From a virus, in IMG/VR virus record IMGVR_UViG_3300030110_002776, positions 1 through 41,205 of that record: DNA of 41,205 bases; one strand, given 5' to 3'. The notes under the pieces are model-generated. The model searched no databases. It worked only from the letters and a program-made list of their open reading frames with translations, and was not told where the DNA came from. The translations under genes were made by a program, and so were the position numbers. Shown one piece after another: positions 2,899 to 39,988 of the stretch (position 1 is the first letter of the stretch; the number at the start of each line of letters is the position of its first letter).

Positions 2899-2998
2899 TA
2901 GACCGTCTCCTTCTAATTAACTCTCTATCAGCTGTGCCTAAGCACCTTCAAGTAGAGTATATTAATTTGGAATAAGTCTATTACCGATGAATAGATTC

Positions 2999-20649: not shown

Positions 20650-21501
20650 ATGAAATTTATACAAAGAAAAACAATGAAAATAAGACCATCTGGTCGTAGT
20701 AGTGATTTTATAACACCATCATTTGGCTTTGGATGTTTATATAAATGTGAGTATTGTTATATGAGAAGACATTTACCTAATGGTTTAAATATTGCTACAA
20801 ACACAGATGCTATAATTGACGAAATACATGCACATTTATGGTTATTACCATGGCCTAAAAAACCTAATCAAACACACGAAAAATATTATACATATGATTT
20901 TAGCTGTAATGAAGATTATATATTACATGCAAAGTATCATGAATGGGATTTATTATTTGATTACTTTAAAACAAATGATAAAGCTATGGGTACTGCAGCA
21001 ACTAAATACGTTAATAAAAAATTACTGGGGTATGATGCTAACAGAAAAATTCGCATAAGGTTTAGCATTATGCCTCAAGTAATATCAGATAAACTAGAAC
21101 CTAGCACATCTAAAATTATAGATAGAATAAAAGCTGTTAATGATTTTTATGAAGCTGGTTATGATGTTCACCTAAACTATTCGCCTATTGTAGTATATAA
21201 AGATTATATAAAAGATTATATAAAATTGTTTAAATTAGTAGACGAAATAGTGGATGAGAGTATTAAAAATAAAGTTAAAGCTGAGTGTATTTACTTAACA
21301 CATAATGAAAAAATGCATAGTATTAATAGTGAAGATGCAAAAGATTTATTATGGAAGCCAGAAATACAGGAGAAAAAAACTTCTAATTATGGTAATGTAA
21401 ATATTAGGTACAAATACAAATTAAAAAGAAAATATATAGAAAATTTTATACAAGCACATGATAATGCTTTACCATGGCAAGAAGTTAGATATATATTTTA
21501 G
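20650..21501 (+). CDS. Radical SAM protein, spore-photoproduct-lyase-like
   Basis: 283 aa. FGFGCLYKCEYCYMRR gives the C-x3-C-x2-C 4Fe-4S motif (C29, C33, C36) at the N-terminus, with SAM-barrel strands after it (KIRIRFSIMPQVIS, YDVHLNYSPIVVY). The ClyrCeYCY form, a basic R-P-S-G-R-S-S lead-in and the overall size resemble spore photoproduct lyase relatives. Repair of a DNA photolesion is therefore possible, but DNA or tRNA modification is equally open. AGGGG precedes the ATG. Followed by small coiled-coil genes. Confidence 0.75.
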   Translation: MKFIQRKTMKIRPSGRSSDFITPSFGFGCLYKCEYCYMRRHLPNGLNIATNTDAIIDEIHAHLWLLPWPKKPNQTHEKYYTYDFSCNEDYILHAKYHEWDLLFDYFKTNDKAMGTAATKYVNKKLLGYDANRKIRIRFSIMPQVISDKLEPSTSKIIDRIKAVNDFYEAGYDVHLNYSPIVVYKDYIKDYIKLFKLVDEIVDESIKNKVKAECIYLTHNEKMHSINSEDAKDLLWKPEIQEKKTSNYGNVNIRYKYKLKRKYIENFIQAHDNALPWQEVRYIF

Positions 21502-23317: not shown

Positions 23318-23383
23318 ATGGAACTAATAATTATTTTATTTGTTGGAGCTATTTTAGTTAGTTATTTTTCTTTAATGTTTTAA
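23318..23383 (+). CDS. Possible 21-aa membrane peptide
   Basis: MELIIILFVGAILVSYFSLM and one more residue: a single hydrophobic helix with an acidic start. There is no ribosome site, and its TAA overlaps by 4 nt the stop of the convergent 1172-aa gene. It could be a real micropeptide or chance in an AT-rich gap. Confidence 0.3.
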   Translation: MELIIILFVGAILVSYFSLMF

Positions 23384-26300
23384 TCATCAGATAACAAGTC
23401 TTCAATTTTAGTAGCAGCACCTGTTATTAAATCTCCAATAACCGTACCACCTCCAATAAATGGTCTAGCAAAGTTTACTATATTCTGCTTTGCTTTTTTT
23501 TCTTCGTCTCTAAGACTGTTTAAAATTGCCCACATAGATTCTTGTCCCCAACTAGCTGTATACCCTAAATTAGGTAGCTTTCTTAAAAAATATTGCATCC
23601 ATCTGTCCCAATCTTCGTTATCTTCATCATCAGGATGTAATACCATCTGAGCCATTATTAATGTAGGTAAAATAAATAAAGAAAGTAAATCTGATGTAAA
23701 CCCTCTTAGTTCTTTTCCTCCAAATGCAAACATAAAGCTTCTAATACCCCAGCCTATTGGACCTGATGCAATTGTAGCTATATCCATAACAGCAGTTATT
23801 GTGCCTTGTATTCTAATAAAGTCTACAAATGATGCAGCTGCAGCGTTTTTTTGTCTTAATTTTTCAGTATTCAATGGAGATGTAGCTACTGCTTTTAACA
23901 TTTTTAAACTAGGTTTATTTAACATTGTTCTATAGCCTTTTTTTCTGTTTCTATAAGAATAATGAGCGTTTATAAACTTTCTAACATCACTACCAAATTT
24001 TTGAGAGCTCCAGTTTTTAAATGTTCCCCATAACTTACCTATTTCTCCATAAAAAGCTTGCCCTGCTCCTTGAGTAGATAATGCAAAGTTTGTTTTTATA
24101 TTTCTTTCTCTACCAAATTGAATTATAGTATTTAAATCTTGCACTTCTAATAACCTTTCTTTATCATTCAATGGTCTTTTAGTAACCTTTCTTTTGCCTT
24201 CAACATAAGTAACAACTGTTTTTTCTCTGTTTAAATCTAAATCAAACCAATCTATTTCAGCATGTAGCATTCCTATATCTTGAGCCATTTGAGCTCCTAT
24301 AATAAAAGAAACAGTACGTATATGCTTTTCAGTTTCATCCATAGTAAATTCAGATGTTACTAGAAAATTATTCCATACTTCTAAGCCTTTACCTCCCCAT
24401 TGTAATGGTTTTTGATATAAAGTTTTTGCCCATTGTTTTCTAGCACTTTTATCTTTAAGTATAGGTGCTATAACGTATTCATGTCTAATTGCATGCTGCA
24501 CTAATCTATTTACTCTTGTAGTAATTCTTCTTTGTTTATTATTATACTTAGCTGCTTCAGTTAAATCTTTATCTAAAATAACAAATTCTTCTGCTGTAGT
24601 AAAAGCTGTAGATTGCTCTAAATAGCCTCTTATATTATCTTCAAATTCTTGTCTAGCTTTAGAAGCTTTTATTCCTTGTTTAATTTTATAATGATAATCA
24701 ACCATTTCCTTTATAATAGCTGCTGAAACTTGTTCTTCTAATTGTACACCAGAAATTCCACTAACCATAGCTTGACTAAAAAAGTCACTAAAGTCTAATA
24801 TACCTGATAGCTCAATAATCTTTTCAATTTTATTTTTTGTATTTTTATTCTTCATTAAATCAACAGCTTTAGAATATTTATTAAAACCACTATCTTGTAT
24901 ATTTCTAAATACATCTATTTTATTTTGAATAGTTGTACCTAAACCTCCTAAATGTAAACCAGTAATAGCTCCTTTAATATTATTTAAAGTATTCTGTGTT
25001 TGTTCTGGAGTTTTATTTCTAAATGGTCTTATAGAATTTAACGTATCATTTAATCTTTCTGTTGTCCCAATTAAATGTTTTAAAGGTCCTCTACTAAATG
25101 CACCTTCTACTGTAGGGTCATTAAATATTACTTTGTATAAATTAATAGATGCATTTGAAACAGCTTTATGCATTTCAGAACTATTCTTTTTTCTAGATAA
25201 AACTATAGAGTTTACTAATTGTGCAGCTAAAATATTTTTTTGTATAGAAGTCATTGAAGATTTTACGTAATCATAAAAAACACTTTCATCTACTCTCATT
25301 TGTCTTACATCAAAAGCATTAGAAACACTTTTAAAATACTTATTATCTGACACATAGCCTGTTAATAATTGACTATTATTTGCATTATCAACCTTTAATC
25401 CAAAAACTCTTTTTCTTACTATTTTTAAATGTTCTAATTTAGATAACTGGTCTTTTAATACTTTACTAGCAACTTTTATTTTATCATCACTAACTTCTTC
25501 TCCATTTGAAAGTTTTCCTTCTTCAACAATTGCTGCTAACTCAGCTACTTTAGCTTCTGCTTTTACTATAGCTGTGCTAAGTATATCAGGAAATCTACTT
25601 TGATTATATAAAATAGGCCAATATCTTTGTTTAAATAAAATATCTTCACTTAATGCGTCCATAGTAAAACCTTTACCACCATTTGCTATTACAAAATCAT
25701 CATTAATGCTATATGAAAATATATCCTTTAATTGATTATATAATTCTAAATCTTTACTAGAAAAATCTCCTAATAAATCAATTTCTCCTCCTGTTAAAGT
25801 TTCTATTTTAGTTTTCCCTTTAAAAAATATCATTCTTAATCTTTCTACATCAATCCTTCCTTCAAAAGCATCTACTAATGCATCAAGTAATCCTTCAGTA
25901 CTAATTGACATTTCATCTTTCATATATTTAAAAAGTTTATCTGTAATTTTCTTTGCTTCTTTAGCTAATCCTAAAAATTCGTTTAATTGACTTTCGCTTA
26001 ACTTAATATCAAAAAAACCTTTCTTTTTATTAGGAGGTGTGTAATCTTTTAATTTAACAGGATTATACCATTTATATTCACCAGTTGGATTACTTTCTTC
26101 ATCATATTCTTTAAGATAATCTTTATATATCATAAACTCATTATCTTTATTTAAGTAAATAAATCCATTCATATACCTGCTAAATAAACCCATCATTTTA
26201 TCTTTTCCGTTAGCTATATCTACATTATTTCCTATTTTTAAAATTTCATACACAACTTTATTCATACCTGTAGATTCATCATTTACAAATTCTGAAGTAA

Positions 26301-26898
26301 ACTGACTAATTCTTTTAGCTACATCTTCAACATATTTTTCTGTCATTCTAGCCATTTGAGAAAAGCCACCTGAAGGCTCTCTAAGTGCTCTTCTTCTTGG
26401 AGTCATTTTTCTTGCAAAATATCCATCAAAATAAACTACAGTATCCTTACCCCAAATATTTTTTTTATTTTCCCAATACTTAGGTTGTAATGCAAAGTTA
26501 TATATTGTATTAAGATTTTCAATAGATAATGCATTAATATTCATAGCCTTTTTACCTTTATAAGTAATGCCAATTTTTACTCCAGATTCACCAGCTATTT
26601 CTCTAATAAACTGATAAACCTCTCCTGAAAATGCTGGATAAGCTTCAATTATTCCAGATATTTTAGCTGCTAATAATTCTCTTTCAGAGTCTTTTCCATA
26701 TTGTTTAATAAATTTCTCATCAATAAAATCCATATTAACAACATCACCAATTTTATATTCTCCTTGTAAAAGAGCTACTATTTTTCTAGTAGTATCATTT
26801 ACCTGCTCAGTCTGTAATAAATTTTCTACTTCATCTTTTGCTAAATCAGCCTTCATTACATCATTTAATATTTCTTTATTTATACTACAATTACTCAT
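23380..26898 (-). CDS. Large virion-associated protein (1172 aa), unknown
   Basis: 1172 aa, mostly helical and charged. Residues about 1025-1095 include a long hydrophobic stretch (FVDFIRIQGTITAVMDIATI and SLFILPTLIMAQMVL) that could enter or cross a membrane; the end is acidic. It directly follows the 3716-aa gene (2 nt gap), with GAGGTG as ribosome site inside that gene's end. Large proteins with a membrane-active C-terminus next to a virion polymerase are likely ejection proteins that form the DNA path through the envelope. No enzyme motif was seen. It ends convergent with the early operon. Confidence 0.7.
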   Translation of the reverse strand: MSNCSINKEILNDVMKADLAKDEVENLLQTEQVNDTTRKIVALLQGEYKIGDVVNMDFIDEKFIKQYGKDSERELLAAKISGIIEAYPAFSGEVYQFIREIAGESGVKIGITYKGKKAMNINALSIENLNTIYNFALQPKYWENKKNIWGKDTVVYFDGYFARKMTPRRRALREPSGGFSQMARMTEKYVEDVAKRISQFTSEFVNDESTGMNKVVYEILKIGNNVDIANGKDKMMGLFSRYMNGFIYLNKDNEFMIYKDYLKEYDEESNPTGEYKWYNPVKLKDYTPPNKKKGFFDIKLSESQLNEFLGLAKEAKKITDKLFKYMKDEMSISTEGLLDALVDAFEGRIDVERLRMIFFKGKTKIETLTGGEIDLLGDFSSKDLELYNQLKDIFSYSINDDFVIANGGKGFTMDALSEDILFKQRYWPILYNQSRFPDILSTAIVKAEAKVAELAAIVEEGKLSNGEEVSDDKIKVASKVLKDQLSKLEHLKIVRKRVFGLKVDNANNSQLLTGYVSDNKYFKSVSNAFDVRQMRVDESVFYDYVKSSMTSIQKNILAAQLVNSIVLSRKKNSSEMHKAVSNASINLYKVIFNDPTVEGAFSRGPLKHLIGTTERLNDTLNSIRPFRNKTPEQTQNTLNNIKGAITGLHLGGLGTTIQNKIDVFRNIQDSGFNKYSKAVDLMKNKNTKNKIEKIIELSGILDFSDFFSQAMVSGISGVQLEEQVSAAIIKEMVDYHYKIKQGIKASKARQEFEDNIRGYLEQSTAFTTAEEFVILDKDLTEAAKYNNKQRRITTRVNRLVQHAIRHEYVIAPILKDKSARKQWAKTLYQKPLQWGGKGLEVWNNFLVTSEFTMDETEKHIRTVSFIIGAQMAQDIGMLHAEIDWFDLDLNREKTVVTYVEGKRKVTKRPLNDKERLLEVQDLNTIIQFGRERNIKTNFALSTQGAGQAFYGEIGKLWGTFKNWSSQKFGSDVRKFINAHYSYRNRKKGYRTMLNKPSLKMLKAVATSPLNTEKLRQKNAAAASFVDFIRIQGTITAVMDIATIASGPIGWGIRSFMFAFGGKELRGFTSDLLSLFILPTLIMAQMVLHPDDEDNEDWDRWMQYFLRKLPNLGYTASWGQESMWAILNSLRDEEKKAKQNIVNFARPFIGGGTVIGDLITGAATKIEDLLSDD

Positions 26899-26900
26899 AT

Positions 26901-29900
26901 TTATACACCTCTACAAGCATCTCTTATTATAATCTCTATTGCTTGTCCACCTTTCATTTCTCTAACTTTGTCTACTTTAATTCTACTTTCATTATTCACG
27001 ATATCATTGTATTCTTTAAAATAAGCCTTAATAATAGAAGCGTCAAGTAAGTTTAAATTCTTAGGATTAACACTTACTGGAGGTATAGATATTGGATATC
27101 TATTTTTACCAGTTACTGAATTATTCTGAAGACTCATTAAACCTCTCAAAAAATATAATGTTGCTGCAGATTTAGCTGTCTCACTTAAAGCTCTAAATTT
27201 AAGGTCATGTTTTTCAATCCAATTAATAAGTTCAGTATTAAAATTCATAATATCAGAACCTTTAACAATAATATTTTTTAATAAAGATAAATATTCTTTA
27301 CTCATATTCTCTGCATATATTCTACCTTCTCTATCTTGAGATTTAGCCCATGTGTCATTAGTTCCTTTAAAGTTCCCAAGTTTTTTATCTTTTTCAACTT
27401 TAGATTCAAATATTTCAAGCCCTAATCTATTAATATATTCTACACTTTCAATGTGAGCATTTTTATGCACATCATTTGATATATAATAAGGTGAGCCTTC
27501 ATATCCAAAATAATTCCAATTTTTTTCTAATTTGTTCCAAATTTTATAAGGTAATATAGCTAAACTTTCTAAAGCAGTTAAAGAACTATTTTTAATATCT
27601 ACTTCGTATTGATTATCTAGTATAAGAGCTTCTCTATATATATTTCCAGCTTCTAAATTTGTATTATCATCTAATCCCATAATAATTTGTAATTCTTTAC
27701 TATTTTTTATCATATCTCTTAAACCATATTTTTTAAATGAATCTAAGCCTTTTCTTACATTGTTTACTCTTGTAAAAAGATTTAAATGAGCTACTATTGC
27801 ATCTAAATGCATATTTTTAGCTGTTTCATTTTGAATATTTATATCTAATAAACTTTTTAATAATCCATTCTTACTGTAATTCCATTCTTCCAAAAGACTA
27901 AATTCGTTATTGTCAGCAGCAGCTTGTAACCATATTCTTAAATATTCATCAACAGTTCCTGACCAGCCACCTTTTTTACCTAAGTAAGTTGCTTCAGGAA
28001 ACTTAATTATTTCATCAGGTTGTCTGACTCTTATTTTTATATTAGTATTTTTAATATTAAATCCGTTATAAACTTGACTTATAATACCGTATATTAATGC
28101 CACATTAGAAACTTCAGATATAGCATTCTGTCCAGCCATTAAATTATTCATAGTTTCAAATCTAGATTTTTGAGTTAGTGGATTCTTAACAATACCTGAA
28201 GCAAATTTATTTAAATCAACTCCTTTTACTTTTAAACTATCTAAATAAGGTTTGTAAACAGCTTCTGTTTCAGGACTTAGTAATTCTATATGAACTTCAT
28301 CTCCATCATAATCTCCTTCAAGCTTAACAAATACATCTCTCCAATTTAATTCTGCTAAGTGACTTCTTTCATGTAAGTTTTTTACTCTAGCCATAAAAGC
28401 TCCACCTTTATGAACTACTGGACTTCTTGTTATCATAACATTGATTTCGTGTTTTTCAAGCAATTCATTTAATCTTGATACTGATAATTTTTTACCACCT
28501 GCAGAATTTTGTCTTGGAATACCTTCTAAATCATGCAGTCTGTCTATAACCATTTGTGAATTTTGTACAGCTAAAGATACTTCTGATGTATTGCTATCAG
28601 GACTTAGTGAAGATTTCAAACTACCAGTAAAATCAGGAGATAAATCATATATAGAACCAGGAGAGTCTCCCATATTAATAATAGTATCAACTATTTGAGT
28701 TTGAACTAATTTATCTACTTTTATTTGTAAGGATGGATGCAGACCTGCACCAAGTTTTGCAAGTTCAAGTGCAATGTCATCAAATCCTTCTATATTTTTA
28801 CCTTTTAATTTATCAAAGAATTGAGCAATACTATTCTGTGCTGCAACTCCACTTTTTGTATTTGGAACAAACCTTCCTTTATCATCCATTTTACTACTAA
28901 AAGATAAATAAAAAGCTCTAGATAATTTCTTTTCTACTTCAGGAACCATTACATTTACAAAATGATTAATTACATTTTCATCATAAACATAGTTATACCA
29001 TTGCATTATATGTTTAATTGTTTTTTTATGAGATTCTGCAAACTTAATAACACCTAAAGATTCTCCTGGAATTGTTATTCCTGTATTACTTGGAAGACCA
29101 AAGCTGTCATCAATAAATCCAGAACTAAATGCTTTATTAGTTTCCATTTTTATTTCATCTTCAGTAGAAAGCATATCAACATATATTCTAATTTCATTTC
29201 CTTCATTGTCAGTATCAATAGCTTGTATATTTCTATTGTCGTCAACTATCCATAAGACTTTTTTTGTTTTTTTATCTATTACTTTAAACCCTTTTTTAGG
29301 TAAAATGTGGTTATGTTTTACAGCTAACATTGAACCTAATTTATTATTAGCATATATAACAGTTTTTAATTTTGCTTGATTAGGTGCTAAACCAAAACTA
29401 TCTTCAACTTTTTTAAATAAATCTTTAGAAGTTAAACTGCCACCATCTCCTATATATTTATTAGTTATTCCACTACCACTTCTTACAGGATTAAACTTTT
29501 TACCATCTATATATTGAAATTCAACATCTTTAGGGTCAAATTTAGCAATTGTAAAATCAGACATTTCTTTACTTCCAGTGATAGGGGTAAATGGTATTTT
29601 AATTCTTTTAAATAAATTAGATGCACCTTTTGGATTTGCTAAGTAGTTAGGAAATATTTTATTCATTTCATAATAAACAGCTATATCTTTTGCTATATTT
29701 GCAATTGGTTGATTTAAATGTTCTTTTATAAATTGTTTTTTAATTTTAATATCTTCAGCATTAGAGTCATCTTTTGGTAATTCATTATTCCAAAAATTAT
29801 TTAACTTTTCTTTATTTGAAGCAATATCTAAAATAGAATCACCATATTCTTTTTGAAATTCTAAATTATCTGTATAATTAAAAAGACCTAATTTCTTAGA

Positions 29901-32900
29901 ATCTCCTCTAATAAAAGCTATTGTTAAACCTAATTTATTTACTTCTTTTTCTAACATCTCTAATTCTTTTGTATTAAAAAATGTATATGATTTACCCCAA
30001 TCTTTAAATTTAACTTGATTTCCAGTTTGAGGATTTGTTGTATATATTTGGTTTCCATTTTCATCAAATTGATTAACTAATCCAAGTACATCTCCTCCAC
30101 TAATAAAGGATATATTTTTATTACCCATAATAGATTCATATAATGTTTGTTTTTCATATTGATTATTTTGATTTCCTGTTACTACATTTATAGGCCCTTT
30201 AAGCTCAACTTCTATTTTTGTAGTTTCAAAACTATTAGTTTCTTGATTAAATTGTTGATGCTTTTTAATAACATAATTATCTCTTTGATTTAATGCAGCT
30301 ACTGGTTTACCGTTAATTAATTCTATATTTCCATTAGTTTTTAAAGAATACATAACTCTGTTATAATATTTATGCAATGCATTATCTTGTCTTTTTGTTA
30401 AAAACTTAGCACTACGTTTAAAATAGTTAGGCATAACAAAATTTTTCCAAGAATTATAATCTGCATAATCTCCTATTTTAACACTTGCTGTAATCTTTTT
30501 TATATCAGATTTTTTTAATGTAATATTTAATTCACGTATAGTTTGTAAATCAGCTTTACTAACATCTCTTTCATTTGTACCTGCTTGTTCTGATATATTA
30601 GCTAAACCTTCGTCTAATTCATCTACAATATCAATAACAACTTCGTTCATATCATCAGTATTAATCCAATGGTATTTAGATTTATTATCTAATTTTCTAA
30701 CATATTTTTTATCATTTCTCTTATCAGCAAACTTTTTATTAAACCATTTTTCAAAGCTATCTTGTACAGGGTCTAATCCAGATAAAGCATCTAACATCAT
30801 ATCTCTATATTCAAATATATCAGCCATTTCAGTAACTTTACTTATAAAATTTATATAATTAGTTTTTCTTAAATTATTAACTTCTTTCCATGCAGTTTCA
30901 AACATATCTTCTGCTATCTTAGTATCATATAATCCTAGTATAGGTTTATTAAGATTCTCGATATCAATCTTTCTTTTAATTTTTGTTTTAATCTGCGTTT
31001 GATTTTGAGGTTTAGTTTTATTATTTATATTATTTTTTAATACTTTCTTGTATCTATAAGGCAATAACTTATCAGGGTTTTTAACATCAACTGTCCAAAG
31101 AGGATATTGAGCCCAATCAGGAAAAGCTAGTCTTAAATTTAAATTATATTTTTTACTTGTTTTTTCTAACTCTTTAGTAAATATACCTTTACTTATTGGA
31201 ATTATCTTTAAATCAAAACCTGCTTTTTTCATTTGTTCTTCTAACATTTTATAGTCATCACTTCTTTCTAAAGTAAAATCTACTTTTTGAGAATATTTAT
31301 CTCCTTTTATTTTATATTTAGTTATATATTCAAATTCTCCTTCTTTAATATATGCAGGTGTATCTTTATCAAACTTTATTTTATTTTTAGAAAGAGCTTT
31401 AAATATATCAGAGTATTTAGAATCGTTTATCATAAAATCAAAAAAATCTTTATAAATACGATAACTTTCTTTTAAACTTAAATCACCTATTTTTTTTCCA
31501 TATGGAGCTAACTTTTGGAAAAGATTATCATAAGCAACTACTAGCATATTGTTTGCTGTAAAAGAACCAAGTTTTTCTGTTACCTCTGCAATAAAATCAT
31601 CAGCAGGAATATTGCTTATAAATCTATCAATATTATCCCATTGAGCTTCTTCTTGAGTATTATATACACTTTTAGCCATAGCATTGCCTTCTATTAAAGT
31701 AATTACTTCTCCAGTATTTAAATAAATAGGTTTATTTGGATTTGTTAAATAAGCATGTCTAATAGAATGTAATATATTAATATTAAACCAATTTTTAGAT
31801 AATGACACAACTTCTTGCATTCTTTTAATTTCTAAACTAGAGTCAATTTCATCTTTAAAGCTTACTTGAAAATCTTCACCTTCTGGAGATAAAGATTCTA
31901 CAGCTTGTTTTTGAACAACGTCATAAGCTGTTAACAAAGATATGCCCATTTTTAATTGCTTATGTATATAATTTTTAGTAATATTTTTTAATAATAAATC
32001 AAATGTTTTATCTGTTGTTCCTTCTTCTTCTAAAATATTTTTAACCCATTCCATTTTTTGAAGAGTAGTTTTATGAGTTTCATAATCTCTCTTATAATTA
32101 CGATATTTATTTCTTATAAGGTTCCACTTTTTTAACTCTGCCCATTGTAATTTTCCAGTTTTAGATAATTTAAATTTTCTATTTCCATTACGAGAAATAA
32201 GGTCTGACATTTTAAACACACCTTCATCCATCATTATCATGTCTTCTATATACACAAAAGCTCTTCCTATAGAAGTATTAGAATTATATGTTCCAAATTT
32301 ATTTGTATCATAATCACTTTGCTCGTTATGCAATTTTAATAAATATTTATAAAAACTATTTTCTGGGTTTCTAATATTTCTACCCTTATCCATTAAAGTA
32401 CCTTTTGGAAATTGTAAATATCCATCATAACCATAATCGTCATCTTGCCACCATTCCCAAAATTCATATAAATCTTTTCTATCTTGTTTTGTATAAGGGC
32501 TATCTTCTCCGTAACTAAATAAAACATTTGAAATTTGCTTTGCTATTCTTAAATCAGGAAATTCATCATATTTTTTATTTTTAAGACTATTTAATTGAAT
32601 ACTAAATTCACTATTCTCATTTAATATATCTGCTGGTGTTATATTATAACTAGTTTCTACAAAAAAGTATTTATCATCTAAAAAATCATTTGATATAATT
32701 TCAAACATTTCATCTAATATTTGATTAGTAGTAGGAACATACCCTTCTAAATTATTAGGATTTAATCTTTTTTGAGCTCCAAAATAAATATCATTTAAAA
32801 TTTTGTCTGCTATTTTAGTATTAATTATATTTATTGATAAATTCCAATTTATTTTTATATCATTTATACTTCTCTTATTTGCTAAATTAACAACAGAAAT

Positions 32901-35900
32901 ACGACCTTTTTGTTCTGGAGAATTAATATCTATATCTTTACCTAATACGAGTAAAAGACTCTTTAATCCATTCATTTCTATTTCTTTGTTTAATCTATCA
33001 TAAACTGAAAACGCAGGTCTATTTGCATATTTTCCTACTGAAATACTTGATATTGCTTTATTTAAAATAATAGGAACATTTCCATAACTAGTTTGAGTAT
33101 AGCCACCTTTTTCAATTAATTTTTCTACAGATGGCATTGATTTAATATCATCTTTAGTTAAAACTAAGTCTTTCAACTTGTTAGCATTTTTCATAATGTT
33201 AATAAATTCCATTAAAACATCTGATTGAAATTCAAATAATAGTTTTCCTCCATCACGAGTAGGAGAAACTCCATACCATCCAACTCCTGTACCACCATCT
33301 AATTCAGGAAAACCATGCATTATTGCACCTGTCCAAGAATTGTTCATATGAGCTACCATTCTATAAATGCTATTATTGTCTCCGTAAGCAAGAAAGTCTT
33401 TTGATACACCAGTTGCAAGTGAAATTCCATCCTGTAAATATTCTGAAAATGCAGTAGTCCCTATGTAGTTTAATCCACTTTGTGCATTTGAATAATTTAA
33501 ATATAATTCTGCTAATACAGAACGTTTCATAGACTTTGTTTTAGGGTTTTCTTTTTTAAATTGATTTACAAAACTTTTTATGTTTTCCTGCTCATTTTTT
33601 CTTATTCCAGGCATTTTAAGCATATCATCTATATTGTATAAAGCATCTGGATTACTTAATAATATATCTACAGGTTTATAAATAAATTCTACTTTTTGAT
33701 TTAATGCTACCATTGCAGTTGCAGCATCAAACAATTTATCTTGAAACTTTTTAGTATCAACATTAATTACTGAATATGCACCTATAAGATTTCTTATTTT
33801 ATTCTGTATTTCACTTTTAGCTTTAATTACAGCATCTTGATTTTGTAAATGCCATTTTCCTCCAAATTTTCTTCTAGTTATTTTATAAGTTTTTTCAATA
33901 GATTGAGTCCATTTTTCAGTAAGAGATATAATATCTATTTCTTTTTTTCTAGAAATAATACTAGTAAGCATATTTTCAATATTTTTTTCTTCTGAATACA
34001 TAATAGAGTTAGTAACATTTTCAATTATTTCTTCAGGTGAATTATTTACTGGAAGATTGTCATTGCTTATTTCATTTATAGTTTCAAAAATATTTTCATC
34101 TAAATTGATTTCATACCTATTTTCAAAATTTGTTATTATATTAACAAGGTCTCTTAAACTAGTATTCGGACTTAACATTTCAGCTTCAGAACCAAATATA
34201 TTTACTTTTGTTTTTAATCCAAGTTTTTCAAAAAGCCAATTAAAGAAATTTTGAACAGCTTGAACTAATTTATTTTTAGAATTATATCTATAAATATTTC
34301 CTTTACCAGCTTCTTCTATAGCACGAACAACTATTTCTTCTTGAATATCTACCTCTGTTTCATCTGCATATTCTAATCTTATTCTATCAATATCTAATCT
34401 TTCTGAATTAATAACTTCATCATATATCTTTTTAAATAATTTAGGGTCAGACATTCTAAGCATAGAAACAATAGGATGAGATAGTTCATGCAATACTGTT
34501 CCTATATCTACTTTAGCTTTATTAACAACTATAGTTTTGCCTTGTATATATCCAGAGTCTTCTTCAGGATTATCAATAAACTCTAATTTGAATTTGCCTT
34601 TTTTTAATTTAACATTTGATATAAGTTTATTAAATATATCTTTAGTATTTTGTTCAAATTTATCTTTTCTGTCTTGTTCTATTTCTTGTTTAGTAGGAGC
34701 AATATCTACTTTCTTTTTCTTTTTATCTAAACCTTCATCTATTTTTTTTTGTCTTGCATCTTCTGCAATCTTAGCTGCTTCTTCTCCATAATTATCTTTT
34801 ATTAATTCAACTAATTTTGACCCTGTATGACTTAATGCTTTAGCTGGGGTTAAACTTTCAAATTTTTCTATTATTTGTGTTGAACTTATATCATTTCGAG
34901 TTTTATCTTTTATAGGTTTGAATACTTTTTCTTCAACTTCAGGAAGTTCTTCTTTTTTAGTTCTATCTAATTTTTCTTTTTCATATAAGTCTAAAGTTTT
35001 TTCTGCTATTGTTTTATTAAAACCTGTCGATACATTTATAGCAATCTTTTGTTTTTCTATAGCAGAGTCTAATTCTTTATCTGACATTTCTTGAGCTGTT
35101 TTACCTCTTCCTGCAGGAGCTCCTTGAGGTCTTTGTGCCCCTGTATCAACTTGTTCAGTAGGAGCTTCTTGTGTAGGGCCTGTTTCAATTGGAGGACCTG
35201 TTTCAAATTCAGGGCCTGTTTCTGGTCCTGCTTCAGGTATTATACTTGTTGGAGTATCTTGAATAACGCCTGTAGGTTTAGGGCTTACAACAGGAGTAGG
35301 AGTATCTTTAGTGTCTACTTCTTTTTCAAGTCTTGTTGTAGTTGGTTTAGTATTTGTACGTTTTGCATCATTTATAAATATATCTTCAAGAGTTTTTCTT
35401 TTTTGTTTATAATCAGCATCTTCATCAAAAGCCATATCAAATCTTTTAAATATTTTCTCTTCTCTTTTACGAACAAAGTCTTTAAGATTTTCATCTTGAC
35501 TTGTTAATATCATATTTACAGAATCTATTATAATACTAGAATCTTCATCAATACCAGCACTTTCAGCGTCTTCTTTTATTTTAACTATTTCTTCATTCTC
35601 ATTACTTAAATCTTCTAGAACAAAAGCTCTTATACCTATCTTTAATTTATTTAATTTTTGAAAATCACTTTGAACATTTGAAGGAGTGTTTTTAACTTCT
35701 CCCTCATTTAAATTTGAAAAATCTTTATGCAATTTAATAGCATCATCATTTTCTAATCCTTCTAAGCCACCAAATTTATCAAATGTTCTTTTTACTTTAA
35801 ATAAAAAGTCATTATTTTCTTTTGCAACTCTTTGAGCATTACCTTTCTTTTTAAAAGTATCTTTGCCTTTTTCAAATATATCTCCATTATTATCATATAT

Positions 35901-38051
35901 ATTTACAACCCACTCACCAGCTTCATTTTTTTCTGCTCTAGCTTCACCATCTTTAACATCTTTTAAATTATATGCTTGTATTTTATTATTAGCTTCTTGT
36001 GTAGATAAATTAAACAAGTTAGCCATATGTGCTGCATCACCTCTACTGTTATAAGATACTGGTATTTGCTCTCCTGTTTCAGGATTTAAAACATCTTCTT
36101 TATTTAATTTAGAAACTGTTCTTTCAATAGTTACATTACCGTCACTATCTTTTACTTCATCGCTTACAATGTTAATAAGGTCATATGACCTAGTATCTTT
36201 ATTCCATTCAAATGCATAAAATATTCCACTTTTATCTTTAGATAATTCAATAATCTGTTTATTCTGTTTTGATAAAACTGAGCCTGTAAGTCTATTTGTT
36301 ATAGCCTGAACACCAAACATAGAGCCTAAAAAGCCACCAAAAAACTCATCTCTTACTTGTTTAAGGCCTCCATGCATCTCATTAAAAGAAGGGCTGTAAA
36401 ACTCTCTTTTATAATGTCCTAATCCAATTGGTCCATGAGCAGCAATAGCAGCTTGTTCATAACCTTGTGCAACTTCTTCAAGACCTTCCATAAAACTTCT
36501 ACCAGCTATTGGCAAACTATTTACAGTAAGCCATCTTCTTGTTCTATTGCCTATACCAGTTCCAACCATTTTTCTTGCTCTTGCTTCTAATTTATCTTGA
36601 GCTCTTCTAAGTATATTTAAACCTGTAGCATCTCCTACATTATATATAAACTTTTCAAATCCTGGGAAAGTAGTTTTTAATAACTTACCACCAACTAAAC
36701 TTAAATTTTCAGTAGCACCAGCTACTCCTATATAAGCTAATGTATTTAATTCTGTAACATCTGCAGCTTCAGGAGCACTTAATCCTATTTTAATAAATCT
36801 TCCATCTTTTTCGAAAATATTAGATTTATTCCACATATCCATATATTCTGAAGTTGATATAGGTCTACCGAATTGCTTTCCTATTATATCTTTTATCCCA
36901 TCTTTATTTTGTATATATTCATTTCTTTCTTGTTCAAAAAGTCTTTGAGCTCCTTCAGCTGTTATTTCCATAGGTTTAGTTAATCTTTCCATTTCTGATA
37001 TAGAATATTCACCACCATTTAATGTTCCTCCAGCAAGTGATGAAGCAGTTATATAACCTACTCCAGTTCCTCCAGGACCAAAAAAAGAACCTACAAGACC
37101 ACCTAGAAATCCAAAACCTTCTGTTAATAATTGTGAAGATAAAGAATTACCTAATGAATTAGTAGCATATTTTAAAAACCCTGTTAGCCCTTCACCAAAT
37201 GGTCCAGCATCTCTTTCCCATTCTCTAACAGCCATAGCTTGTGGATTTTCTAATAAATACTTTGCTTCATATTCAGTTGCTTCTTTCATTTTTGTATCAC
37301 GCCATAAATCTATATTACTAGCATGTTGTTTTGTTGATGCCCATTCAAAACTAATTAAATCTTCTGATGGTCTTTCACCACTAATCATACTATATCTTTC
37401 TACAAATTCATCTCTATAAAATTGCTCTGTAAGTAAATCAAATTGTTGTTTTTCTTCTTGATTAAGTGATGTTAAATTTTCTGTATAATGGTCTGCTAAA
37501 TATCTGTCTGAGTTAATATTTCCTGGAGATTTAACTAATGGAAGAGATTTATATTCATTTATTTTTTGATGAGGTGGAATAAAACCACTAGCTAATATTC
37601 CTGTAGCAGGTGTGCCTCCAGTACCAATAAATGCATCTACTGCATTATTAGCACCAATTTGGTAGTCATATAAGAATGATTTTTTAATTCTGAAAAATGC
37701 ATCACTAGCAATGTCTCCAAATGTAGGTTCTCCAAGCATCCTATCAGTTAATGGATGATTTTCTGAAATAGCTTTTTGTACTAATTCATTATCATCATAA
37801 TCATTATATACTTCTGGGTTTGTTTTGTAGCTTTCTAATCTTAATACTGCAGCAGCATCTTCATTAGTTAGCATTTTAGGATTGCCTTGTGAATCAGTTT
37901 GATTTAAAATTTGTTCTTGAGATTTACTTATATCATCTATATAAGTAGCTTCTTCTTGGAGTGCTAGTTCTAGCTCTTCTTGTTTTTTCTTATACTCATC
38001 TTCAGTTAAAAAATACCCTGAATAAATAGAGTTTCCTTCTTTGTATGCCAT
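26901..38051 (-). CDS. Giant polyvalent virion protein with metallopeptidase and two-barrel RNA polymerase
   Basis: 3716 aa in one frame. In order: helical N-terminus; Gly-rich hydrophobic segment (about 285-345) possibly membrane-active; Pro/Thr/Glu linker with ETGP repeats (about 905-985); zincin motif HELSH (1188-1192) with EEIVVRAIEE about 50 residues on; a long middle region; and a polymerase-like C-terminal part. The last has DGGSLTSKDL (from 2869) followed by candidate lysines near 2912, as in one barrel, and RSPVVHKGG (3209-3217) then EGDYDGDEVHIE (3245-3256), the Mg-binding DxDGD of the other barrel. This resembles the virion RNA polymerase of phage phi14:2 and RNAi-type polymerases. 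It is in the late operon, so it is probably packaged, ejected and used for early transcription. AAAGGA precedes the ATG. Confidence 0.8.
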   Translation of the reverse strand: MAYKEGNSIYSGYFLTEDEYKKKQEELELALQEEATYIDDISKSQEQILNQTDSQGNPKMLTNEDAAAVLRLESYKTNPEVYNDYDDNELVQKAISENHPLTDRMLGEPTFGDIASDAFFRIKKSFLYDYQIGANNAVDAFIGTGGTPATGILASGFIPPHQKINEYKSLPLVKSPGNINSDRYLADHYTENLTSLNQEEKQQFDLLTEQFYRDEFVERYSMISGERPSEDLISFEWASTKQHASNIDLWRDTKMKEATEYEAKYLLENPQAMAVREWERDAGPFGEGLTGFLKYATNSLGNSLSSQLLTEGFGFLGGLVGSFFGPGGTGVGYITASSLAGGTLNGGEYSISEMERLTKPMEITAEGAQRLFEQERNEYIQNKDGIKDIIGKQFGRPISTSEYMDMWNKSNIFEKDGRFIKIGLSAPEAADVTELNTLAYIGVAGATENLSLVGGKLLKTTFPGFEKFIYNVGDATGLNILRRAQDKLEARARKMVGTGIGNRTRRWLTVNSLPIAGRSFMEGLEEVAQGYEQAAIAAHGPIGLGHYKREFYSPSFNEMHGGLKQVRDEFFGGFLGSMFGVQAITNRLTGSVLSKQNKQIIELSKDKSGIFYAFEWNKDTRSYDLINIVSDEVKDSDGNVTIERTVSKLNKEDVLNPETGEQIPVSYNSRGDAAHMANLFNLSTQEANNKIQAYNLKDVKDGEARAEKNEAGEWVVNIYDNNGDIFEKGKDTFKKKGNAQRVAKENNDFLFKVKRTFDKFGGLEGLENDDAIKLHKDFSNLNEGEVKNTPSNVQSDFQKLNKLKIGIRAFVLEDLSNENEEIVKIKEDAESAGIDEDSSIIIDSVNMILTSQDENLKDFVRKREEKIFKRFDMAFDEDADYKQKRKTLEDIFINDAKRTNTKPTTTRLEKEVDTKDTPTPVVSPKPTGVIQDTPTSIIPEAGPETGPEFETGPPIETGPTQEAPTEQVDTGAQRPQGAPAGRGKTAQEMSDKELDSAIEKQKIAINVSTGFNKTIAEKTLDLYEKEKLDRTKKEELPEVEEKVFKPIKDKTRNDISSTQIIEKFESLTPAKALSHTGSKLVELIKDNYGEEAAKIAEDARQKKIDEGLDKKKKKVDIAPTKQEIEQDRKDKFEQNTKDIFNKLISNVKLKKGKFKLEFIDNPEEDSGYIQGKTIVVNKAKVDIGTVLHELSHPIVSMLRMSDPKLFKKIYDEVINSERLDIDRIRLEYADETEVDIQEEIVVRAIEEAGKGNIYRYNSKNKLVQAVQNFFNWLFEKLGLKTKVNIFGSEAEMLSPNTSLRDLVNIITNFENRYEINLDENIFETINEISNDNLPVNNSPEEIIENVTNSIMYSEEKNIENMLTSIISRKKEIDIISLTEKWTQSIEKTYKITRRKFGGKWHLQNQDAVIKAKSEIQNKIRNLIGAYSVINVDTKKFQDKLFDAATAMVALNQKVEFIYKPVDILLSNPDALYNIDDMLKMPGIRKNEQENIKSFVNQFKKENPKTKSMKRSVLAELYLNYSNAQSGLNYIGTTAFSEYLQDGISLATGVSKDFLAYGDNNSIYRMVAHMNNSWTGAIMHGFPELDGGTGVGWYGVSPTRDGGKLLFEFQSDVLMEFINIMKNANKLKDLVLTKDDIKSMPSVEKLIEKGGYTQTSYGNVPIILNKAISSISVGKYANRPAFSVYDRLNKEIEMNGLKSLLLVLGKDIDINSPEQKGRISVVNLANKRSINDIKINWNLSINIINTKIADKILNDIYFGAQKRLNPNNLEGYVPTTNQILDEMFEIISNDFLDDKYFFVETSYNITPADILNENSEFSIQLNSLKNKKYDEFPDLRIAKQISNVLFSYGEDSPYTKQDRKDLYEFWEWWQDDDYGYDGYLQFPKGTLMDKGRNIRNPENSFYKYLLKLHNEQSDYDTNKFGTYNSNTSIGRAFVYIEDMIMMDEGVFKMSDLISRNGNRKFKLSKTGKLQWAELKKWNLIRNKYRNYKRDYETHKTTLQKMEWVKNILEEEGTTDKTFDLLLKNITKNYIHKQLKMGISLLTAYDVVQKQAVESLSPEGEDFQVSFKDEIDSSLEIKRMQEVVSLSKNWFNINILHSIRHAYLTNPNKPIYLNTGEVITLIEGNAMAKSVYNTQEEAQWDNIDRFISNIPADDFIAEVTEKLGSFTANNMLVVAYDNLFQKLAPYGKKIGDLSLKESYRIYKDFFDFMINDSKYSDIFKALSKNKIKFDKDTPAYIKEGEFEYITKYKIKGDKYSQKVDFTLERSDDYKMLEEQMKKAGFDLKIIPISKGIFTKELEKTSKKYNLNLRLAFPDWAQYPLWTVDVKNPDKLLPYRYKKVLKNNINNKTKPQNQTQIKTKIKRKIDIENLNKPILGLYDTKIAEDMFETAWKEVNNLRKTNYINFISKVTEMADIFEYRDMMLDALSGLDPVQDSFEKWFNKKFADKRNDKKYVRKLDNKSKYHWINTDDMNEVVIDIVDELDEGLANISEQAGTNERDVSKADLQTIRELNITLKKSDIKKITASVKIGDYADYNSWKNFVMPNYFKRSAKFLTKRQDNALHKYYNRVMYSLKTNGNIELINGKPVAALNQRDNYVIKKHQQFNQETNSFETTKIEVELKGPINVVTGNQNNQYEKQTLYESIMGNKNISFISGGDVLGLVNQFDENGNQIYTTNPQTGNQVKFKDWGKSYTFFNTKELEMLEKEVNKLGLTIAFIRGDSKKLGLFNYTDNLEFQKEYGDSILDIASNKEKLNNFWNNELPKDDSNAEDIKIKKQFIKEHLNQPIANIAKDIAVYYEMNKIFPNYLANPKGASNLFKRIKIPFTPITGSKEMSDFTIAKFDPKDVEFQYIDGKKFNPVRSGSGITNKYIGDGGSLTSKDLFKKVEDSFGLAPNQAKLKTVIYANNKLGSMLAVKHNHILPKKGFKVIDKKTKKVLWIVDDNRNIQAIDTDNEGNEIRIYVDMLSTEDEIKMETNKAFSSGFIDDSFGLPSNTGITIPGESLGVIKFAESHKKTIKHIMQWYNYVYDENVINHFVNVMVPEVEKKLSRAFYLSFSSKMDDKGRFVPNTKSGVAAQNSIAQFFDKLKGKNIEGFDDIALELAKLGAGLHPSLQIKVDKLVQTQIVDTIINMGDSPGSIYDLSPDFTGSLKSSLSPDSNTSEVSLAVQNSQMVIDRLHDLEGIPRQNSAGGKKLSVSRLNELLEKHEINVMITRSPVVHKGGAFMARVKNLHERSHLAELNWRDVFVKLEGDYDGDEVHIELLSPETEAVYKPYLDSLKVKGVDLNKFASGIVKNPLTQKSRFETMNNLMAGQNAISEVSNVALIYGIISQVYNGFNIKNTNIKIRVRQPDEIIKFPEATYLGKKGGWSGTVDEYLRIWLQAAADNNEFSLLEEWNYSKNGLLKSLLDINIQNETAKNMHLDAIVAHLNLFTRVNNVRKGLDSFKKYGLRDMIKNSKELQIIMGLDDNTNLEAGNIYREALILDNQYEVDIKNSSLTALESLAILPYKIWNKLEKNWNYFGYEGSPYYISNDVHKNAHIESVEYINRLGLEIFESKVEKDKKLGNFKGTNDTWAKSQDREGRIYAENMSKEYLSLLKNIIVKGSDIMNFNTELINWIEKHDLKFRALSETAKSAATLYFLRGLMSLQNNSVTGKNRYPISIPPVSVNPKNLNLLDASIIKAYFKEYNDIVNNESRIKVDKVREMKGGQAIEIIIRDACRGV

Positions 38052-38062
38052 TTATATCCTTT

Positions 38063-38081
38063 AAAGTAACCTGATTACTTT
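38063..38081 (-). other. Hairpin between the 635-aa and giant genes
   Basis: AAAGTAA (38063-38069) pairs with TTACTTT (38075-38081), 5-nt loop, in the 29-nt spacer just before the AAAGGA of the giant gene. No U-run follows in the transcribed direction; it may tune translation of the giant gene. Confidence 0.4.
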
Positions 38082-39988
38082 TATTTTAATTTATCTTTTA
38101 AAAGACTTATTTTATCCTCTTTAATTCTAAACATTTTTTTACCATCTATTGTTGCAGATTCTAAATATTTATCTGGAATACCTCTTGCTTTTCCAAATTG
38201 AACTGATTGCCAAAATTCTGCATCTTGATAGCTTCTTTCTATAATTCCACTATTAAAACCTAAGCCTAAATCATAACCTAACATAGGAATATTTCCTCCA
38301 CTATCTAAATTTACTTGAAAATATCTTCTTCCTTGACCTAAATCTTTAGGAAAGGTATATTTCATATTATGCAATATATCATTAACATTATCATCATAAT
38401 GCTGAAATGCTTTATCTATCTTTCCATAATGCTCAAACCAAGAAGAAATAACATCTATATTTTCTTTCTTTCCTTTTCCAATATATGTTGGAAAAAATCC
38501 TTTTTTAAAATCTAATTGGTCTAAATAACCTTCTTTATACATGCCTTCACTAGATTGCTTTTCACTACTAGATGGCACAATAATATCATGCATTATTTTT
38601 AATATAGCATTTTTTTCATCTTGAGTTTGAGATTCATCAAAAGCTCCGACTAAATCTCCTAAAGTTGTATACTTTCCTTCTAATCCACTTCCTACTAAAT
38701 CTAATTTTATATTCTTAGTTCTAAAATCTTTGTCTGAATATTCTTTTAATGCTCCAATAATTTTATCACCTATTAATGCTTTTTGAACCTCATAGTTATT
38801 TGGAGTAACTATTTTTTCTAATTTCTCTAAACCTTTTCCAAAATCTTTAATAATTGTTAAATCTTTATATTGTGAACTTTCATATTGACTTACTACTATT
38901 TTATCTCTAGATGCTGTTAATTGTTGTACAGTATCTACATTTTCAGGTTTCTTTTCCCAAAGCAAATTAGCGATTCTTTTAGCTTCATCATTTTCTAATT
39001 TTTTTATAGAATTTCTTTCAGATATTATTCTATTTTCTAATCTTGTTTCTTTGTCAAATAAACTTTCAGGTAATACTTTACCACCTTCATTTAAAATATC
39101 TTTTTCCCATAGCTTGCTTCTAATATCATCTACCTTATCTTCTGTAACTCCATATGGGTCAAATAACACATTGTCTGCAAATGCTTCTTTTCTAGCAGTT
39201 GAGTTTTTCCAAAAACTTCTAATTTCATTTTCTGATTGTATGTCTCCAGAATTTATAGCTTCTATTAATTGACTTTTCTTTATAGTTTGACCATCACTAA
39301 CTTGAAATTCATCAGGCCAATTATTTACATCATCTACATTATATCCATCAATATTTTGTTCAGGATGATAAGGACTATATTTACTTATAAATTTTCTTAA
39401 ATCTGATTTATCATATATATCTTGATATTCAGGAATATATTCAGGAGGAGTCCCTTCAGGGTAACCTTCCTTTGTTATAAAATCTTGCTGAAAAAAGTTT
39501 ATATCATCATGTAGTATTGATAATCTATTTTTAATGTCATCTATATAAGCATCACCAATTAGATTTGCTTTTTCTATATTTCCAATATTTTCTTGAACAG
39601 TTTTTCCAACATCATATCTTACATTAAACCCATCTATATAGCTATTTTTTAATCCTGTAAGCACTTCATCTCCTCCTTGAGTTTTATGCTTGTCAGCTAA
39701 ATCTATAAAGTCAGATTCAACTAATCCAAGATTTTTTACATCATTTCTTATATTCTGTAATTCTCTATTATTCTGATTAAATATTTGCATCAAAGATTCT
39801 TCTTGAGCATTTAAGTTTTGTTTATGATTATTGTAATCAACTAAATGCTGATTATTTATTTTTTGTATTTCTTTTCTAGATTCTATTTCAGCATTTGCAA
39901 GTTGTTTATTTTGAAACGTACTATACATATTAGAAATAGTATCTAATACTGCTAAAGCCATTCTATTATTATCTCTATCTCTGCTCAT
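38081..39988 (-). CDS. Probable internal virion protein (635 aa)
   Basis: 635 aa beginning MSRDRDNNRMALAVLDTISN. The first 170 residues are Gln/Asn-rich coiled coil (NAEIESRKEIQKINNQHLVD). The rest is acidic and mixed, with no enzymatic signature; the end is Lys-rich (EDKISLLKDKLK). AAGGAG overlaps the stop of the upstream gene. Its place upstream of the giant polymerase gene suggests an internal head or ejection protein. Family not recognised. Confidence 0.7.
   Translation of the reverse strand: MSRDRDNNRMALAVLDTISNMYSTFQNKQLANAEIESRKEIQKINNQHLVDYNNHKQNLNAQEESLMQIFNQNNRELQNIRNDVKNLGLVESDFIDLADKHKTQGGDEVLTGLKNSYIDGFNVRYDVGKTVQENIGNIEKANLIGDAYIDDIKNRLSILHDDINFFQQDFITKEGYPEGTPPEYIPEYQDIYDKSDLRKFISKYSPYHPEQNIDGYNVDDVNNWPDEFQVSDGQTIKKSQLIEAINSGDIQSENEIRSFWKNSTARKEAFADNVLFDPYGVTEDKVDDIRSKLWEKDILNEGGKVLPESLFDKETRLENRIISERNSIKKLENDEAKRIANLLWEKKPENVDTVQQLTASRDKIVVSQYESSQYKDLTIIKDFGKGLEKLEKIVTPNNYEVQKALIGDKIIGALKEYSDKDFRTKNIKLDLVGSGLEGKYTTLGDLVGAFDESQTQDEKNAILKIMHDIIVPSSSEKQSSEGMYKEGYLDQLDFKKGFFPTYIGKGKKENIDVISSWFEHYGKIDKAFQHYDDNVNDILHNMKYTFPKDLGQGRRYFQVNLDSGGNIPMLGYDLGLGFNSGIIERSYQDAEFWQSVQFGKARGIPDKYLESATIDGKKMFRIKEDKISLLKDKLK

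What the first reader, a model, noticed from the sequence alone, without database searches (positions are those of the whole stretch)
26901..38051. 3716-aa virion protein joining a zinc metallopeptidase to a two-barrel RNA polymerase
One frame holds HELSH (1188-1192) and, about 2000 residues later, DGGSLTS (2869 on) plus DYDGD (3247-3251) with an upstream RSPVVHKGG that mirrors the RAPTLHR-type segment before NADFDGD in cellular beta-prime subunits. Known: crAss-like phage phi14:2 packages a single-chain polymerase related to RNAi-type enzymes, and polyvalent phage proteins often contain zincins. Inferred: this virus ejects its own transcriptase with a protease that could free it from the giant chain. 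The size and the fusion are unusual, and the surrounding genome does not look like a Bacteroidetes-infecting crAss phage, given its strong Shine-Dalgarno sites.
Basis: partly seen in the sequence, partly recalled or inferred. Interest (0 to 1): 0.92.

Follow-up and report, generated by a model that had tools for sequence, protein, structure and literature searches.

The report
Giant phage protein: protease plus transcriptase
This uncultured bacterial virus encodes a 3716-residue protein that combines a zinc-protease domain with a very divergent RNA-making enzyme of the kind used by crAss phages and fungal RNA interference, probably carried in the virus particle so that transcription can start as soon as the DNA enters the cell.

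Summary
The 3716-aa ORF is real, on the minus strand, with every motif at the stated residue. Ordinary searches (Pfam, PHROGs, PDB by sequence) find nothing. I collected 37 related ORFs from IMG/VR. All carry the catalytic DxDxD motif, and among the 32 representative cores aligned (window included) the three Asp, both DPBB-A Lys, DG (2869-2870), R3209, P3211 and QA-x-x-D (3376-3380) are invariant. AlphaFold2 of residues 2560-3716 on 34 sequences gave pLDDT 82 and pTM 0.81. Its best solved matches are QDE-1 (E 3e-10) and the crAss phi14:2 virion RNA polymerase (6e-10), so the C-terminus is a single-chain two-barrel RNA polymerase. HELSH belongs to a zincin: HExxH is conserved 23/23 where present and Glu1239 20/20. 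23 of the 31 ORFs with enough upstream sequence carry HExxH in the same chain. Packaging in the virion and any proteolysis remain inferred. The fusion has precedents: N4 (different polymerase fold), P23-45, and two Suoliviridae crAss giants (HExxH plus DxDxD) seen here. What is new is a large, very divergent polymerase lineage in phages with an SU10-type capsid protein, not detectably Crassvirales, with swappable helicase, GHKL or FtsK-gamma modules.

The parts
26901..38051 (-). 3716-aa giant ORF (stop codon included)
   Evidence: full-length relatives at 31-33% identity over the chain and a partial one at 92%
34872..38051 (-). N-terminal region, residues 1-1060, variable, with Gly-rich hydrophobic stretches (about 290-345 and 570-595); candidate envelope-spanning ejection part
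   Evidence: assignment by analogy with the N4 and P23-45 membrane segments
34182..34604 (-). zincin-like metallopeptidase domain, residues about 1150-1290
   Evidence: relative L023 hits Pfam WLM at its HExxH (E 0.003)
34476..34490 (-). HELSH, residues 1188-1192
   Evidence: HExxH 23/23
34335..34337 (-). Glu1239, likely third zinc ligand
   Evidence: 20/20
30375..34154 (-). about 1,260-residue stretch (1300-2559), about 1,000 aa longer than in other clades; invariant H-x-F-x-E-L ... GWY ... EFQSDV (1579-1612)
   Evidence: function unknown
26904..30374 (-). single-chain two-barrel RNA polymerase, residues 2560-3716
   Evidence: AF2 pLDDT 82.3, pTM 0.81; Foldseek QDE-1 2.9e-10, phi14:2 6.3e-10
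29127..29534 (-). putative DPBB-A (residues about 2840-2975)
   Evidence: YonO profile aligns here (E 0.094)
29427..29447 (-). DGGSLTS 2869-2875 (DG-x4-S)
29364..29366 (-). Lys2896, invariant
   Evidence: 32/32
29316..29318 (-). Lys2912, invariant
   Evidence: 32/32
28401..28427 (-). RSPVVHKGG 3209-3217, counterpart of the RAPTLHR segment of beta-prime
28299..28313 (-). DYDGD 3247-3251, Mg-binding catalytic triad of DPBB-B
27909..27926 (-). QAAADN 3376-3381 (QA-x-x-D invariant), counterpart of VDNAK in phi14:2 and IDFAK in YonO downstream of the triad
23380..26898 (-). 1172-aa downstream ORF, co-oriented, conserved next to the polymerase in three relatives
   Evidence: no family match
38081..39988 (-). 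635-aa upstream ORF in the same late/virion block

Best explanation
The ORF encodes a giant polyvalent ejection protein of a tailed, probably short-tailed, phage. From N to C it has a variable region with Gly-rich hydrophobic stretches, a zincin metallopeptidase domain (about 1150-1290), a clade-specific module of unknown role (1300-2560), and a complete single-chain two-barrel DNA-dependent RNA polymerase (2560-3716). The polymerase is of the QDE-1/crAss phi14:2 kind, with DPBB-A lysines 2896 and 2912 and the DPBB-B triad D3247/D3249/D3251. Most likely the protein is packaged in the capsid, passes through the tail partly unfolded ahead of or with the DNA, and starts rifampicin-resistant transcription of the early block without new protein synthesis, as N4 gp50 and phi14:2 vRNAP do. 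SHOWN by computation: the ORF, the polymerase fold and catalytic residues, the zincin signature, conservation across many viruses. INFERRED: packaging, ejection, early promoters, and any self-cleavage or host-protein cleavage by the zincin.
For: AF2 of 2560-3716 with 34 sequences: pLDDT 82.3, pTM 0.81. PDB Foldseek: QDE-1 2.9e-10, phi14:2 vRNAP 6vr4 6.3e-10, P23-45-group RNAPs 1.7e-4 to 1e-3, then archaeal and bacterial large RNAP subunits; every hit at E <= 0.001 is an RNA polymerase or RNAP complex. In the viral library, crAss RNAP proteins also match. 32/32 conservation of D2869, G2870, K2896, K2912, E2966, K2968, R3209, P3211, D3247, D3249, D3251, Q3376, A3377, D3380. Independent sequence links: the DPBB-B profile finds beta-prime of AR9 and Thermus at the exact site as 4 of its 5 best PDB hits (weak, E 0.13-0.19); hhalign places DPBB-B on the crAss profile (E 0.014) and DPBB-A on YonO (E 0.094), reversed controls 0.63-0.65 and off site. 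Zincin: HExxH 23/23, Glu 20/20, hhalign to phi14:2 gp076 zincin E 0.0017. Same gene order beside tail/virion genes and a 1.1-1.2 kaa partner in relatives.
Against: No proteomics, so packaging is not shown. TM-scores to known RNAPs are moderate (0.35-0.40 by query, up to 0.48 by target), so this is fold-level similarity with much divergence. No early promoter motif was recognised: repeats in the early block look like chance or ribosome-binding sites, and sigma-70-like sites equal the shuffle mean. HExxH is absent from 8 of 31 relatives with enough upstream sequence, so the zincin is not essential to the polymerase.
Confidence: 0.8

Rival explanations
1. The polymerase is real, but the zincin does not free it: the chain is packaged and ejected intact, and the zincin serves encapsidation, channel assembly or cleavage of a host protein, as proposed among the options for N4.
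For: N4 vRNAP is packaged unprocessed although its zincin region is required for encapsidation (PMC5512222); in phi14:2 the zincin sits in a separate adjacent structural protein, so cleavage from the polymerase is not needed.
Against: Zincin ligands are strictly conserved where present, so catalysis is likely selected; P1 DdrB is cited as a self-cleaving polyvalent protein.
Confidence: 0.5
2. The enzyme is made late and acts in the infected cell (non-virion RNAP) and is not packaged.
For: Some phage two-barrel RNAPs are non-virion, e.g. P23-45 gp64 and YonO-type enzymes; packaging was not shown here.
Against: Its gene lies in the virion block next to very large tail-type genes, on the same strand, in four relatives; non-virion forms such as YonO (839 aa) and P23-45 gp64 (about 590 aa solved chain) are small and not fused to ejection-type regions.
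Confidence: 0.12
3. The barrels are a degenerate polymerase kept for a structural or DNA-binding role.
For: Extreme sequence divergence; three relatives have GDxDHD instead of GDxDGD.
Against: All three Asp, both Lys and the QA-x-x-D motif are invariant in 32/32 divergent sequences.
Confidence: 0.04
4. It copies RNA rather than DNA (an RNA-dependent enzyme like cellular QDE-1).
For: The best structural match is QDE-1.
Against: QDE-1 itself has a solved DNA-template complex (7y7s); the phi14:2 relative transcribes DNA in vivo (PMC10136315); the phage has a DNA genome.
Confidence: 0.03

Closest known systems
[quoted passage not shown] PDB 6vr4)
   Same: Single chain, two barrels, DxDxD, VDN motif downstream; giant virion protein; neighbouring structural protein gp076 has an HEIMH zincin that aligns with this one.
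   Different: About 10% identity, no direct sequence hit; the zincin is in the next gene there and in the same chain here; the rest of the genome is not detectably crAss-like.
Giant ORFs of Suoliviridae crAss phages cr55_1 (4551 aa) and cr10_1 (4460 aa)
   Same: HExxH and, about 1,450 residues later, DFDVD/DFDID in one chain, in the same order as here.
   Different: No detectable full-length similarity; the HExxH there was tested only by motif and a weak profile match.
N4-like (Schitoviridae) virion RNAP gp50
   Same: About 3,500-aa ejected RNAP with an HExxH/zincin domain and a membrane-associated N-terminus (PMC12633501, PMC5512222).
   Different: The polymerase is of the T7 fold, not two-barrel; the zincin follows the polymerase there and precedes it here.
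Thermus phage P23-45 gp96 (tape-measure-fused virion RNAP)
   Same: Two-barrel virion RNAP in a giant chain that also has a metallopeptidase and membrane segments (PMC10770324).
   Different: The polymerase is N-terminal in a 5,002-aa tape measure protein of a long-tailed phage; here it is C-terminal.
Neurospora QDE-1 and phage YonO
   Same: Single-chain two-barrel fold; DG and K motifs and DxDGD.
   Different: Not fused to ejection or zincin regions.
Polyvalent proteins of phages and plasmids (Iyer et al. 2017)
   Same: Injected multidomain chains with the zincin as hub; relatives here swap in SF1 helicase, GHKL ATPase or FtsK-gamma.
   Different: The RNAP reported in that survey was the N4/T7 type.

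Membership tests
Single-chain two-barrel RNA polymerases | Two double-psi barrels in one chain forming the catalytic core | tested here: met
   Confident AF2 model, top Foldseek matches are all such enzymes; individual barrels not inspected atom by atom
Single-chain two-barrel RNA polymerases | DxDxD Mg-binding triad in DPBB-B | tested here: met
   Invariant
Single-chain two-barrel RNA polymerases | Two conserved Lys in DPBB-A | tested here: met
   K2896 and K2912 in 32/32; identity with the QDE-1 Lys pair inferred from position
Single-chain two-barrel RNA polymerases | Triad and lysines cluster in one active site | not testable with these tools
   Model coordinates not available
Single-chain two-barrel RNA polymerases | RNA synthesis activity | not testable with these tools
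   Needs biochemistry
Zincin-like metallopeptidases | HExxH plus downstream Glu | tested here: met
   23/23 and 20/20; WLM hit in L023; profile match to phi14:2 gp076
Zincin-like metallopeptidases | Zn binding and proteolysis | not testable with these tools
   Needs biochemistry; the domain was not modelled
Crassvirales (crAss-like phages) | Crassvirales head/packaging genes | tested here: not met
   SU10-type MCP, P22-type portal; listed best TerL and portal matches are other podovirus-like phages; no marker-gene tree was made
Crassvirales (crAss-like phages) | RNAP sequence detectably related to a crAss RNAP | tested here: inconclusive
   tblastn of the C-terminal 999 aa finds nothing in 50,697 phage records; profile match E 0.014 and fold match
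Schitoviridae (N4-like) vRNAP | T7-type polymerase domain | tested here: not met
   The fold search returns two-barrel enzymes only at E <= 0.001
P23-45 type TMP-fused vRNAP | N-terminal RNAP in a tape measure protein | tested here: not met
   RNAP is C-terminal
Polyvalent proteins | Several exchangeable effector domains in one injected chain | tested here: inconclusive
   Domain swaps upstream of the zincin in relatives are met; injection not shown
Virion-packaged RNAP | Present in purified particles | not testable with these tools
   Needs proteomics

The most novel reading that the evidence does not exclude
Outside Crassvirales, a large group of uncultured phages with an SU10-type capsid protein carries its own deep branch of QDE-1/crAss-type RNA polymerase as the C-terminal end of a modular, ejected start-up protein: membrane-active N-terminus, exchangeable helicase, GHKL or FtsK-gamma module, zincin, then polymerase. 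The zincin-polymerase pair, fused here and in Suoliviridae and split in Steigviridae, would be an ancient unit, and the DNA-handling modules would act on the incoming genome together with the transcriptase.
Probability: 0.4. Interest if true: 0.75.

Novelty: new variant of a known kind. Interest (0 to 1): 0.6.

Why it matters
It extends crAss/QDE-1-type single-chain RNA polymerases to a diverse group of phages outside Crassvirales that sequence searches do not recognise, and gives invariant residues that make this group searchable. It also suggests that a giant injected chain joining a zincin to a transcriptase is a recurrent solution built with unrelated polymerase folds (N4, crAss, P23-45, this group), which makes the role of the zincin a directly testable question.

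Tried and rejected
Pfam, PHROGs and PDB sequence searches with the single protein found nothing. A first AF2 run with 6 relatives was uninterpretable (pLDDT 44.8) and was replaced by one with 34 sequences. hhalign with a single phi14:2 sequence gave no usable match; profiles were needed. A genome-contig scan found no relative in 84,980 prokaryote genomes, so no prophage or host link. Early-promoter search by repeats and by sigma-70 consensus gave nothing above chance. The whole-core profile against the PDB gave only unrelated weak hits, as did the DPBB-A profile; only the DPBB-B profile hit RNAP. Considered and rejected: the second HExxH-like string HERSH at 3227 as a protease site (not conserved, lies in DPBB-B); membership in N4-like phages (wrong polymerase fold); membership in Crassvirales (capsid, portal and terminase do not match).

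Full report
OBSERVATION. The window is bases 1-41205 of a 53,637-base virus record. The ORF at 26901-38051 runs on the minus strand and encodes 3716 aa. By composition one expects 0.035 HExxH and 0.07 DxDGD in the chain.

NO HOMOLOGUE BY ORDINARY SEARCH. Pfam, PHROGs and a PDB sequence search gave only chance-level matches. tblastn of the C-terminal 999 aa found nothing in 50,697 phage records, and no GTDB species genome carries a relative findable by the tool.

THE FAMILY. IMG/VR scans gave one 92% partial relative and four full-length ones at 31-33% identity, then, using the conserved DxDGD and QAAVDN regions, more distant members. Counting the window, 38 ORFs were collected, most complete ones 2143-3807 aa; all have a DxDxD catalytic motif. 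On an alignment of 32 representative cores the following are invariant: D2869, G2870, K2896, K2912, E2966, K2968, N3195, L3198, R3209, P3211, D3247, D3249, D3251, L3280, Q3376, A3377, D3380. G3250 is present in 29/32; three viruses have GDxDHD. This is the expected set for a two-barrel polymerase: two lysines in the first barrel, a metal-binding Asp triad in the second, and a motif resembling VDNAK of phi14:2 and IDFAK of YonO some 80-250 residues downstream.

SEQUENCE LINKS TO KNOWN ENZYMES are weak one by one but fall on the right sites. The DPBB-B profile searched against 177,635 PDB sequences has RNAP beta-prime (phage AR9; Thermus) as 4 of its 5 best hits, aligned DxDGD to DxDGD and R-x-P to R-x-P, E 0.13-0.19. 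hhalign of the family core against a crAss RNAP profile lands on the same segment (E 0.014) and against a YonO profile on the first-barrel DG/K segment (E 0.094); reversed controls give 0.63-0.65 at unrelated places. These are single-comparison E-values.

STRUCTURE. With six sequences AF2 failed (pLDDT 44.8). With 34 diverse sequences residues 2560-3716 gave pLDDT 82.3 and pTM 0.81. Foldseek against the PDB: QDE-1 2.9e-10, phi14:2 vRNAP 6.3e-10, several further QDE-1 entries, the P23-45-group RNAPs (8f72, 8f5m) 1.7e-4 to 1e-3, then archaeal, bacterial and eukaryotic large RNAP subunits. TM-scores are moderate (0.35-0.40 by query, up to 0.48 by target), as expected for a divergent enzyme. The viral library adds two unnamed proteins at 28-30% identity with TM 0.81-0.88, then crAss RNAPs. 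I could not read coordinates, so distances in the active site were not measured.

ZINCIN. HELSH is followed by Glu1239; across 23 family members HExxH is 23/23 and the Glu 20/20 where aligned (members were chosen for having HExxH, so the Glu is the informative count). One member hits the Pfam WLM metallopeptidase domain over its HExxH (E 0.003). The profile aligns with the HEIMH region of the phi14:2 neighbouring virion protein gp076 (E 0.0017) and with the HEAYH region of the crAss cr10_1 giant (E 0.0063). Of 31 ORFs with at least 1000 aa before the catalytic motif, 23 have HExxH, against 0.03 expected per 2000 aa. The usual gap from HExxH to DxDGD is 820-1150 residues; the window's own clade has an extra 1,000 (2004-2130), a module of unknown role.

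MODULARITY. Upstream of the zincin, relatives carry an SF1 RecD/Pif1-like helicase (L017, L031, L066), a GHKL ATPase (L023) or an FtsK-gamma DNA-binding domain (L007, E 5.5e-25). The N-terminal part contains Gly-rich hydrophobic stretches in the window protein and most relatives checked. This is the make-up of polyvalent ejected proteins (PMC5512222).

GENOME. SU10-type major capsid protein, P22-type portal and TerL point to a short-tail-like phage; listed TerL best hits are cobaviruses, ICP2-like and other podovirus-like phages, not Crassvirales. Replication genes (primase-helicase, Sak4-like, Gam-like, RusA-like) lie on the opposite strand. The giant gene sits in the tail/virion block with a conserved 1.1-1.2 kaa partner downstream.

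MECHANISM. Best reading: a packaged, ejected transcriptase. In N4 and phi14:2 such enzymes start early transcription without host RNAP (PMC12633501, PMC10136315). Packaging, ejection, promoters and proteolysis are inferred here. The zincin may act on the chain itself, on channel assembly or on a host target; N4 vRNAP is packaged intact, so 'frees the polymerase' is only one option.

NOVELTY. The combination is not unique: N4 (T7-type fold) and P23-45 (two-barrel) have it by publication, and two deposited Suoliviridae giants have it by motif (I found no mention of a peptidase in the two Crassvirales papers searched). The new part is the lineage: a broad, unannotated group outside Crassvirales with its own branch of the QDE-1/crAss-type enzyme and exchangeable ATPase or DNA-binding modules. 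I score interest 0.6.

Noticed in passing
window 20650-21501 (+); also L005 16441-17292, L006 25247-26098: A spore-photoproduct-lyase-like radical-SAM protein (PF20903, E 4e-22) in the early block, with similar ORFs in relatives; odd for a phage and perhaps for UV damage repair.
   Followed up: no
L076, L077, L079, L080: A subclade has GDxDHD in place of GDxDGD and lacks HExxH; a natural variant of the RNAP active site.
   Followed up: partly
L017, L031, L066, L023, L007: Relatives carry an SF1 helicase, a GHKL ATPase or an FtsK-gamma domain upstream of the zincin in the same chain.
   Followed up: partly
L102 (cr55_1) and L103 (cr10_1), whole ORFs: Deposited Suoliviridae crAss giant proteins carry HExxH about 1,450 residues before DxDxD in a single chain, annotated as hypothetical.
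   Followed up: partly
window 30375-34154 (residues 1300-2559): A clade-specific 1,000-residue insertion with invariant H-x-F-x-E-L, GWY and EFQSDV; no family match.
   Followed up: no
L002 2001-3602 (record about 40000-41602): A run of undetermined bases (XXXX in the translation) flanked by a duplicated stretch (PGYDQDSGLSEEQW...): probably a scaffolding artefact.
   Followed up: no
L004, L006, L007 next to the giant ORF: The chain of very large tail/virion genes (600-1200 aa) leading to the giant ORF is largely unrecognised by PHROGs; several recur at the same place in relatives.
   Followed up: partly
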